The position numbers and the translations under genes are program-made. Under the pieces are notes generated by a model. The model made no database searches. It was not told the origin of the DNA and saw nothing but the letters and a program-made list of their open reading frames with translations. DNA of 64,000 nucleotides from Campylobacterales bacterium. Lineage in GTDB: Bacteria; Campylobacterota; Campylobacteria; Campylobacterales; Sulfurimonadaceae. Each line of letters begins with the position of its first letter. Position 1 is the stretch's first letter. Shown piece after piece: positions 21,336 through 46,465 of this stretch. The stretch is from the NCBI GenBank assembly GCA_026390135.1, contig JAPLGN010000046.1, forward strand, positions 31,920 through 95,919, read 5' to 3'.

Positions 21336-22112
21336 ATGAAGATTGACGGACGTTTTTGGCTCACTAAAGAGGGTCAAAGCTTTTTAGGTGCAGGGCGGAT
21401 AGAACTGTTGGAGCGAATCGATCAAACCGGTTCCATCAACGCTGCTGCCAAAGAAATGAAAATGAGCTACAAAGCGGCATGGGAGCGAATCAACGGGATG
21501 AATCTCTTAGCCGACCAACCGTTGATCGATCGCCTCACAGGTGGTAAGGGTGGCGGAGGGACAAAACTCACCCCCTATGCCCGTGAACTAATCGCTACAT
21601 TTCATCGATTTAACGAACTTCACCGTCAGTTCATCGACCGTTTCTCTGAAGCTGGAAATGATCCTGAACGCCTTGCCCGAATCCTCAGCCGTACGTTTCT
21701 TACCACCAGTGCACGCAATCAGATCCCCTCAACATTACAAACCATCGAAACAAACGGCCTCCACTCTACCCTCACCCTTGCCCTTAGCGGTTCAGATGTG
21801 CTACGTTCCACCATCACTGCTAAATCCGTTGACAATATGGGGTTGGCTATCGGATGTGACACCTACGCAATCATCAAATCAAGCGATATTAATATCGTCT
21901 CAACACCACCTTCTTCCGATACCGCTGATAATATCCTCTCAGGCACTGTGGAAACCTTAGAAAGCTCAGGGGATAATATTGAAATTGGCCTCCGCCTAGA
22001 TGGAAACACACTCCTCATCGCCCTCGAAAAACAAGATGCACTACAAAAGTTAAAAGTAGGTATGACCGCTTACGCAATTATTTCACCGTTGCATATAATT
22101 ATCGGGCTGTAA
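21336..22112 (+). CDS. modE: ModE, molybdate-responsive transcriptional regulator (wHTH plus two C-terminal TOBE/Mop domains)
   Basis: GRIELLERIDQTGSINAAAKEMKMSYKAAWERINGMN...GGKGGGGTKLTPYAREL; duplicated C-terminal TOBE segments. Confidence 0.93.
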   Translation: MKIDGRFWLTKEGQSFLGAGRIELLERIDQTGSINAAAKEMKMSYKAAWERINGMNLLADQPLIDRLTGGKGGGGTKLTPYARELIATFHRFNELHRQFIDRFSEAGNDPERLARILSRTFLTTSARNQIPSTLQTIETNGLHSTLTLALSGSDVLRSTITAKSVDNMGLAIGCDTYAIIKSSDINIVSTPPSSDTADNILSGTVETLESSGDNIEIGLRLDGNTLLIALEKQDALQKLKVGMTAYAIISPLHIIIGL

Positions 22113-45189: not shown

Positions 45190-45807
45190 TCAACTGCTAC
45201 AACGATACAGATGCTTAAATTCAACAAAGTCGGTCCATAAAGGTTCATAAGGGTATCGGATAATTTCACAATCTGTTGTTTGACGATTGATCATTCGGAT
45301 GGAAAACGGCTCAATCCAATTCCAAAAGTTTTCAATGCATTCTGATGGCATGCTCATATCTTGAATTACCTTTTTATACATCCTCAACCAAACTTCTCGC
45401 GCATGTTCATCCACAGTTATTTGAAAATGCCGCATTTGAAGAGTTGGATATCCAACAGGTATTGGTGACATATCATCTCGCTTTAATATATCAACAAAAA
45501 AATTAGCCGTTTTAACGGTTACAAATTCAAATGCATAATTTTCAAAAGGTAAAAAATCATCAATCTCGCTTAATCGTAAGAGATTATGGTGATAGCGAAC
45601 CATTTGACGAATTTTATCCTCACCCCAAAGTTCATATAAACGATTAGAAGGCAATGGAACTTCGGGAAAAATTCGATTTATACAATGATTAGCAGGTAAA
45701 CCATCAAATAGCTCTGTTGGTATTGAAATAGTATCCACAGTGATACTATCCATAGTATTTATTAACCGTGTCATATATACCCTTTTTAGTAAATCTAAAA
45801 TCAACAA
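45190..45807 (-). CDS. Truncated hemoglobin (group II-like), paralog of 24804-25379; real start probably M12 (about 45774)
   Basis: IRQMVRYHHNLLRLSEIDDFLP...ANFFVDILKRDDMSPIPVGYPTLQMRHFQITVDEHAREVWLRMYKKVI. Confidence 0.85.
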   Translation of the reverse strand: MLILDLLKRVYMTRLINTMDSITVDTISIPTELFDGLPANHCINRIFPEVPLPSNRLYELWGEDKIRQMVRYHHNLLRLSEIDDFLPFENYAFEFVTVKTANFFVDILKRDDMSPIPVGYPTLQMRHFQITVDEHAREVWLRMYKKVIQDMSMPSECIENFWNWIEPFSIRMINRQTTDCEIIRYPYEPLWTDFVEFKHLYRCSS

Positions 45808-45809
45808 CT

Positions 45810-45833
45810 CGCTATATCTTAAATGACATAACG
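45810..45833. promoter_or_regulatory. ModE box (canonical 24-bp form) upstream of second truncated hemoglobin
   Basis: CGCTATAT-N8-ACATAACG. Confidence 0.8.
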
Positions 45834-45919
45834 ATATTATAGAGCAATCTACTTAAAATTTTGTAAATATTTTTTTATAATTTTAGATGATTTTCTGAGC
45901 AATGCTCAGAAAAATGGAG

Positions 45920-46336
45920 TTATTTTGCGAGGATAATAAAATTAGATTTGATAAGTGCGTAGACCGTATCACCCACTTTGAAATCCAAATCTTCAACTGA
46001 GTCTTCAGTAATAACGGCAGTTAATGTCTGATCGCCCATAGAAAGCTTTAATTCACCATTAACAATACCGTTTTTTACTTCTGTAACTTTAGTTTCGATA
46101 ATATTACGAATACTAATTTGACTTGGCTTCTCTTATGCAACCATCACAAATGGCGCCTTAATAATTGCATAGATACTATCACCCATTTTTAAAGCCATAT
46201 CTTCAACTGAATCATTGGTTATAACTGCAGTTAATGTTGCGCCACCACCGATAGAAAGAATAATTTCACTGTTGATTTTACCCGATTTAATCTCGGTAAT
46301 CGTCCCTTTTAACTCATTACGTGCACTGGTTTTCAT
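45920..46336 (-). pseudogene. ModG-like di-Mop (molbindin) gene interrupted by one in-frame TAA at 46133-46135
   Basis: First Mop MKTSARNELKGTITEIKSGKINSEIILSIGG...YAIIKAPFVMVA, TAA, then same frame EKPSQISIRNIIETKVTEVKNGIVNGELKLSMGD...YALIKSNFIILAK TAA. Confidence 0.75.
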
Positions 46337-46410
46337 AACATTCCTTTAAAAATATTTCGAATGTCTGCGGTAATCAAAGTATTTCTAAATTTAGCTTAAT
46401 CTTTTGCTTA

Positions 46411-46429
46411 TTATATATTTGATATAACG
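46411..46429 (-). promoter_or_regulatory. ModE-like half-box upstream of mop gene
   Basis: Reverse strand reads CGTTATATCAAATATATAA, in the mop/slyD divergent intergenic region. Confidence 0.5.
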
Positions 46430-46465
46430 TTGATTAATCTTTATTTTATTTTATCAGGAACCACT

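What the first reader, a model, noticed from the sequence alone, without database searches (positions are those of the whole stretch)
45920..46336. Di-Mop (ModG-like) gene split by exactly one in-frame TAA
The 67-aa Mop ORF (46133-46336) ends in TAA at 46133-46135. The same frame then continues uninterrupted for 70 codons encoding a second Mop domain (EKPSQISIRNIIETKVTEVKNGIVNGELKLSMGDQTLTAVITEDSVEDLDFKVGDTVYALIKSNFIILAK) and stops at 45920-45922. The second domain has no ATG or RBS of its own at its start. Tandem di-Mop proteins (ModG) are established. Options: a recent nonsense mutation, a sequencing error, stop readthrough, or deliberate production of single-Mop and di-Mop forms. The intact frame and clear conservation downstream argue against old decay.
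Basis: partly seen in the sequence, partly recalled or inferred. Interest (0 to 1): 0.7.

Follow-up and report, generated by a model that had tools for sequence, protein, structure and literature searches.

The report
Nonsense-split two-domain molybdate-binding gene
In one uncultured Sulfuricurvum genome, a gene for a common two-domain molybdate-storage protein has a single stop codon between its domains, while all eleven close relatives found have an intact gene; most likely this is a recent point mutation that leaves a still plausible one-domain protein, so it is an ordinary event unless proved otherwise.

Summary
Window 46336-46133 (-) encodes a complete 67-aa Mop/TOBE domain that ends in TAA. 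The same frame continues for 70 codons as a second complete Mop domain, with no ATG, GTG or TTG until its codon 32, and stops at 45922-45920. Named near relatives are Sulfuricurvum; the window lies in a draft genome (56 contigs, 81.8% complete). Eleven standalone orthologues (63-82% identical, most in the same genus, one shown to be syntenic) are unbroken di-Mop (ModG-like) genes, and all carry lysine AAA where the window has TAA. The simplest account is one lineage-specific A-to-T change. Domain 2 shows no decay: if untranslated, it has been so for at most about 5% of the window's own branch. No other internal stop of this kind lies in the 64 kb, TAA is the commonest stop there, and none of 30 tRNA loci scanned is a suppressor. 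No relative shares the stop, so programmed readthrough or a conserved two-product design is unsupported. Best reading: a very recent, tolerated nonsense mutation that turns a di-Mop into a canonical-length mono-Mop. The main rival is an assembly error or minority allele, which needs reads I could not examine. Interest is low.

The parts
46133..46336 (-). First Mop/TOBE domain, 67 aa, ending in TAA (46135-46133): a canonical single-Mop length
46133..46135 (-). In-frame TAA in the interdomain linker; AAA (Lys) in all 11 close orthologues
45920..46132 (-). Second Mop/TOBE domain, 70 codons plus stop, no usual start codon before codon 32; conserved but presumed untranslated
45891..45913 (-). Perfect stem-loop TTTTCTGAGC-ATT-GCTCAGAAAA just after the final stop (terminator-like); a stem-loop follows the gene at the same place in the genus orthologues
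   Evidence: sequence inspection; not listed by the consensus scan
46337..46432 (-). Upstream region: ModE-box-like CGTTATATC...AATAAGC, invariant ACCGCAGACATTC in the presumed leader, and Shine-Dalgarno AAAGGA; all intact in the window

Best explanation
A ModG-like di-Mop gene (cytoplasmic molybdate/tungstate buffering protein) next to the mod genes of a Sulfuricurvum lineage has very recently taken a single-base nonsense change, lysine AAA to TAA, in the linker between its domains. The message most likely still runs through both domains to the terminator-like hairpin, but translation stops after domain 1. The product is then a 67-aa single-Mop protein with the ligand residues in place, which probably assembles as a Mop-type hexamer (trimer of dimers) instead of a ModG-type trimer. 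Domain 2 is an untranslated remnant that has not had time to decay. Shown: the stop, the intact relatives, the AAA codon and the lack of decay. Inferred: that the stop is real in the organism, that the 67-aa protein folds and binds oxyanion as a homo-oligomer, and that domain 2 is not translated.
For: Eleven standalone orthologues, 63-82% identical, are unbroken frames with AAA at the site. The locus is syntenic: SlyD-like gene, di-Mop and modC-modB-TOBE-modD-methyltransferase lie together both in the window and in G016. Upstream elements, Shine-Dalgarno and terminator-like hairpin are kept. Domain 2 dN/dS against relatives with estimable dS is 0.01-0.06, no higher than between intact genes. 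Only 6 amino-acid changes fall on the window branch in domain 2, against 15 in domain 1; about 236 would be expected if domain 2 had been neutral for the whole branch, which bounds the untranslated time to about 5% or less. The truncated product aligns without gaps in the region compared to single-Mop proteins of 67-78 aa (1gug 68 aa, Tub 9beb 78 aa; 1fr3 67 aa). By Tub numbering it keeps S4, R6, N22, K60 and A61, positions that bind tungstate in Tub, with T40 for Ser40 (PMC11980592).
Against: There are no reads and no second genome of the same species, so fixation in the organism is not shown. The absence of decay fits a sequence error equally well. No data show that a di-Mop's first domain alone can form a hexamer. 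Synonymous sites are near saturation, so the 5% bound is rough.
Confidence: 0.62

Rival explanations
1. Assembly or base-calling error, or a minority allele carried into the consensus: the organism, or most of its population, has an intact di-Mop gene.
For: The window lies in a fragmented draft genome (56 contigs, 81.8% complete). The stop is a single-base difference from 11 intact orthologues and the gene shows no other damage. No other broken gene of this kind lies in the window, so a lone error suffices.
Against: Random substitution errors in a deep consensus are rare, and only a small share make stops (general knowledge). The stop falls exactly at the end of domain 1, where a stop is most tolerable; an error would strike anywhere in 138 codons.
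Confidence: 0.28
2. The stop is used: low-level readthrough, or a restart on a non-AUG codon (AUU at 46117-46115, nine bases after a purine-rich GAGAAG), makes both mono-Mop and some domain 2 or di-Mop.
For: Domain 2 remains under strong amino-acid constraint on the window branch. By inspection, an AUU codon sits at the domain start behind a weak Shine-Dalgarno-like stretch.
Against: No other genome searched has the stop. UAA is the least leaky stop in bacteria (general knowledge) and the commonest stop in the window. No suppressor tRNA was found in the tRNA loci scanned. The first usual start codon is 32 codons into domain 2. The GAGAAG stretch is simply the Glu-Lys coding sequence of the linker. 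A recent mutation explains the constraint without any mechanism.
Confidence: 0.07
3. A stable, selected gene fission: the lineage has changed to a homomeric Mop, with domain 1 adapting and domain 2 lost as a coding unit.
For: Domain 1 has the most unique residues of any orthologue (8) and 15 changes on the window branch against 6 in domain 2.
Against: Domain 1 is also the faster domain in the intact orthologues, and G004 has 7 unique domain 1 residues and STA1 has 6. Domain 2 would have decayed had the change been old.
Confidence: 0.03

Closest known systems
ModG di-Mop molbindin (Azotobacter vinelandii, PDB 1h9j/1h9k/1h9m)
   Same: Two tandem Mop domains in one frame; the intact orthologue aligns over residues 1-136 with 1h9j (E 6.3e-24); gene next to mod transport genes
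   Different: In the window the frame is cut by TAA after domain 1
Single-domain Mop/Tub molbindins (C. pasteurianum MopII 1gug; Sporomusa ovata Mop 1fr3; Eubacterium limosum Tub 9beb)
   Same: The 67-aa product has the same length class and aligns over nearly its whole length, with ligand positions S4, R6, N22, K60 and A61 kept
   Different: It derives from a di-Mop gene, and a second domain remains downstream in the same frame
ModE C-terminal di-Mop region (1h9r, 1b9m)
   Same: Two Mop domains
   Different: ModE carries an N-terminal DNA-binding domain; this gene has none, and the genome holds a separate ModE-like gene at window 21336-22112

Membership tests
TOBE / Mop domain (PF03459) | Profile match over the curated cut-off | tested here: met
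   64.2 and 58.2 bits against a cut-off of 22.3
ModG-type di-Mop protein | Two Mop domains in one uninterrupted protein without a DNA-binding domain | tested here: not met
   TAA between the domains; met in 11 orthologues
ModG-type di-Mop protein | Trimer binding eight oxyanions | not testable with these tools
   Needs purified protein; the reference property is in PMC11980592
Single-domain Mop/Tub | One TOBE domain making up about 90% of a protein of roughly 70 aa | tested here: met
   67 aa, domain at 3-66; alignment to 1gug, 1fr3 and 9beb
Single-domain Mop/Tub | Hexamer (trimer of dimers) with type-1 and type-2 oxyanion sites | not testable with these tools
   Ligand positions are present in the sequence; assembly needs experiment
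Programmed stop-codon readthrough | Stop conserved among relatives with coding constraint downstream | tested here: not met
   No relative carries the stop; AAA in 11 of 11
Suppressor tRNA / altered code | A tRNA reading UAA, or internal TAA in other genes | tested here: not met
   31 tRNA genes found, none seen with a stop anticodon (the genome is about 82% complete); no other internal stop without a start nearby in 64 kb

The most novel reading that the evidence does not exclude
The TAA is real and fixed, and the lineage makes both a mono-Mop and a small amount of di-Mop (or free domain 2) from one gene, by leaky termination or AUU restart, giving mixed oligomers with different oxyanion capacity.
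Probability: 0.05. Interest if true: 0.5.

Novelty: new member of a known kind. Interest (0 to 1): 0.15.

Why it matters
If real, it is a natural case of a di-Mop gene becoming a mono-Mop gene in one base change, which offers a clean test of whether the first domain of a ModG-type protein can replace its partner domain by self-association. Otherwise it is a routine nonsense change or sequence error in a draft genome.

Tried and rejected
Other apparent interruptions in the order (hits reported with '1 TAA') were checked in ten cases and were matches running past the normal 3' end of ModE or di-Mop genes. Apparent tandem single-Mop genes in G044, G034 and G055 were ModE-like proteins or an intact di-Mop. 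No Rfam family matches the locus. The literature searches found no work on this gene in Sulfuricurvum and no directly relevant bacterial UAA readthrough study. No metagenome scan was available, so a strain-level check of the codon was not possible. No structure prediction was run: the monomer fold is not in doubt and the tool cannot test oligomers.

Full report
Observation. The frame on the minus strand at 46336-45920 reads as two complete Mop/TOBE domains separated by one TAA. Both halves pass the Pfam TOBE cut-off by a wide margin. A codon-usage scan of all six frames of the window found no other stop flanked on both sides by coding-like sequence without a start codon at the junction.

Origin. 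The window lies in a draft genome of 1.87 Mb in 56 contigs, 81.8% complete. Named near relatives are Sulfuricurvum genomes. In the window the gene sits between a SlyD-like gene (my reading of the sequence; it had no Pfam hit) and a globin-like gene. Beyond the globin lie modC, modB, a TOBE protein, a ModD-like gene and a methyltransferase. In G016 the same genes flank an intact di-Mop, without the globin, so orthology rests on synteny as well as similarity.

Relatives. A search of 60 relatives and then 200 genomes of the order found 11 standalone di-Mop orthologues at 63-82% identity. All are unbroken, and all have AAA (Lys) at the codon where the window has TAA. The more distant ModE and di-Mop matches are reported unbroken as well; of the hits flagged with a stop, the ten that I fetched are matches that run beyond the true end of a gene. 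The stop is therefore unique to this genome among those searched and is one substitution away from its orthologues.

Age. Domain 2 of the window is not decaying. dN/dS against the relatives whose dS could be estimated is 0.01-0.06, the same range as between intact genes. By parsimony 6 amino-acid changes lie on the window branch in domain 2 and 15 in domain 1. Given the fitted branch length, about 236 amino-acid changes would be expected if domain 2 had been neutral for the whole branch, so the untranslated phase is at most about 5% of it. Synonymous sites are close to saturation, so this is an order-of-magnitude bound. It excludes old decay but does not separate a very recent mutation, an error and continued translation.

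Readthrough or restart. TAA ends 38 of 58 long frames in the window. No stop anticodon occurs among the tRNA genes found. The stop is not conserved in any relative. The next usual start codon is 32 codons into domain 2. An AUU codon lies at the domain boundary nine bases after GAGAAG, but that stretch is just the Glu-Lys linker code. Programmed use of the stop is unlikely.

What the gene would make. The 67-aa product aligns over nearly its whole length with solved single-Mop proteins of 67-78 aa. By the numbering of the Tub paper (PMC11980592) it keeps Ser4, Arg6, Asn22, Lys60 and Ala61, with Thr for Ser40. In that paper single-domain Tub is a hexamer with eight sites, and ModG is described as a trimer with eight sites. 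A nonsense change in the linker is thus the least damaging place to break a di-Mop gene. This is inference; no assembly test was possible.

Verdict. A real feature of the assembled sequence, best read as a very recent, tolerated nonsense mutation (0.62). The main alternative is an error or minority allele (0.28). There is little room for a regulated two-product gene (0.07) or a stable fission (0.03).

Noticed in passing
46359-46371 (-), with pairing partner 46337-46343: ACCGCAGACATTC is invariant just upstream of the di-Mop start in all 8 genomes of the genus that carry this gene; elsewhere in the 41 genus genomes searched it occurs only once, in G009. Its GACATTC can pair with GAATGTC/T just before the ATG, enclosing the Shine-Dalgarno; predicted hairpins are -5.4 to -8.9 kcal/mol, z-scores -0.7 to -3.3. 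Changes in the 3' arm stay pairable but the 5' arm never varies, so covariation is weak. No Rfam match. Possibly a translational control element.
   Followed up: partly
46406-46429 (-) and 45809-45834 (-): ModE-box-like sequences: CGTTATATC...AATAAGC before the di-Mop gene (conserved) and a palindrome TCGTTATGTCATTTAAGATATAGCGA before the globin-like gene. In G025 a similar palindrome precedes a ModA-like gene.
   Followed up: partly
45190-45774 (-): A bacterial-globin-like gene (PF01152, E 2.8e-6) behind the ModE-like palindrome, next to the mod genes; G016 lacks it at this place.
   Followed up: no
L115, L116 (G223, G234): Two genomes placed in another family of the order (f6; G223 matches a record titled Sulfurovaceae) have 75-77% identical di-Mop genes, as close as within the genus: possible horizontal transfer or misclassification.
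   Followed up: no
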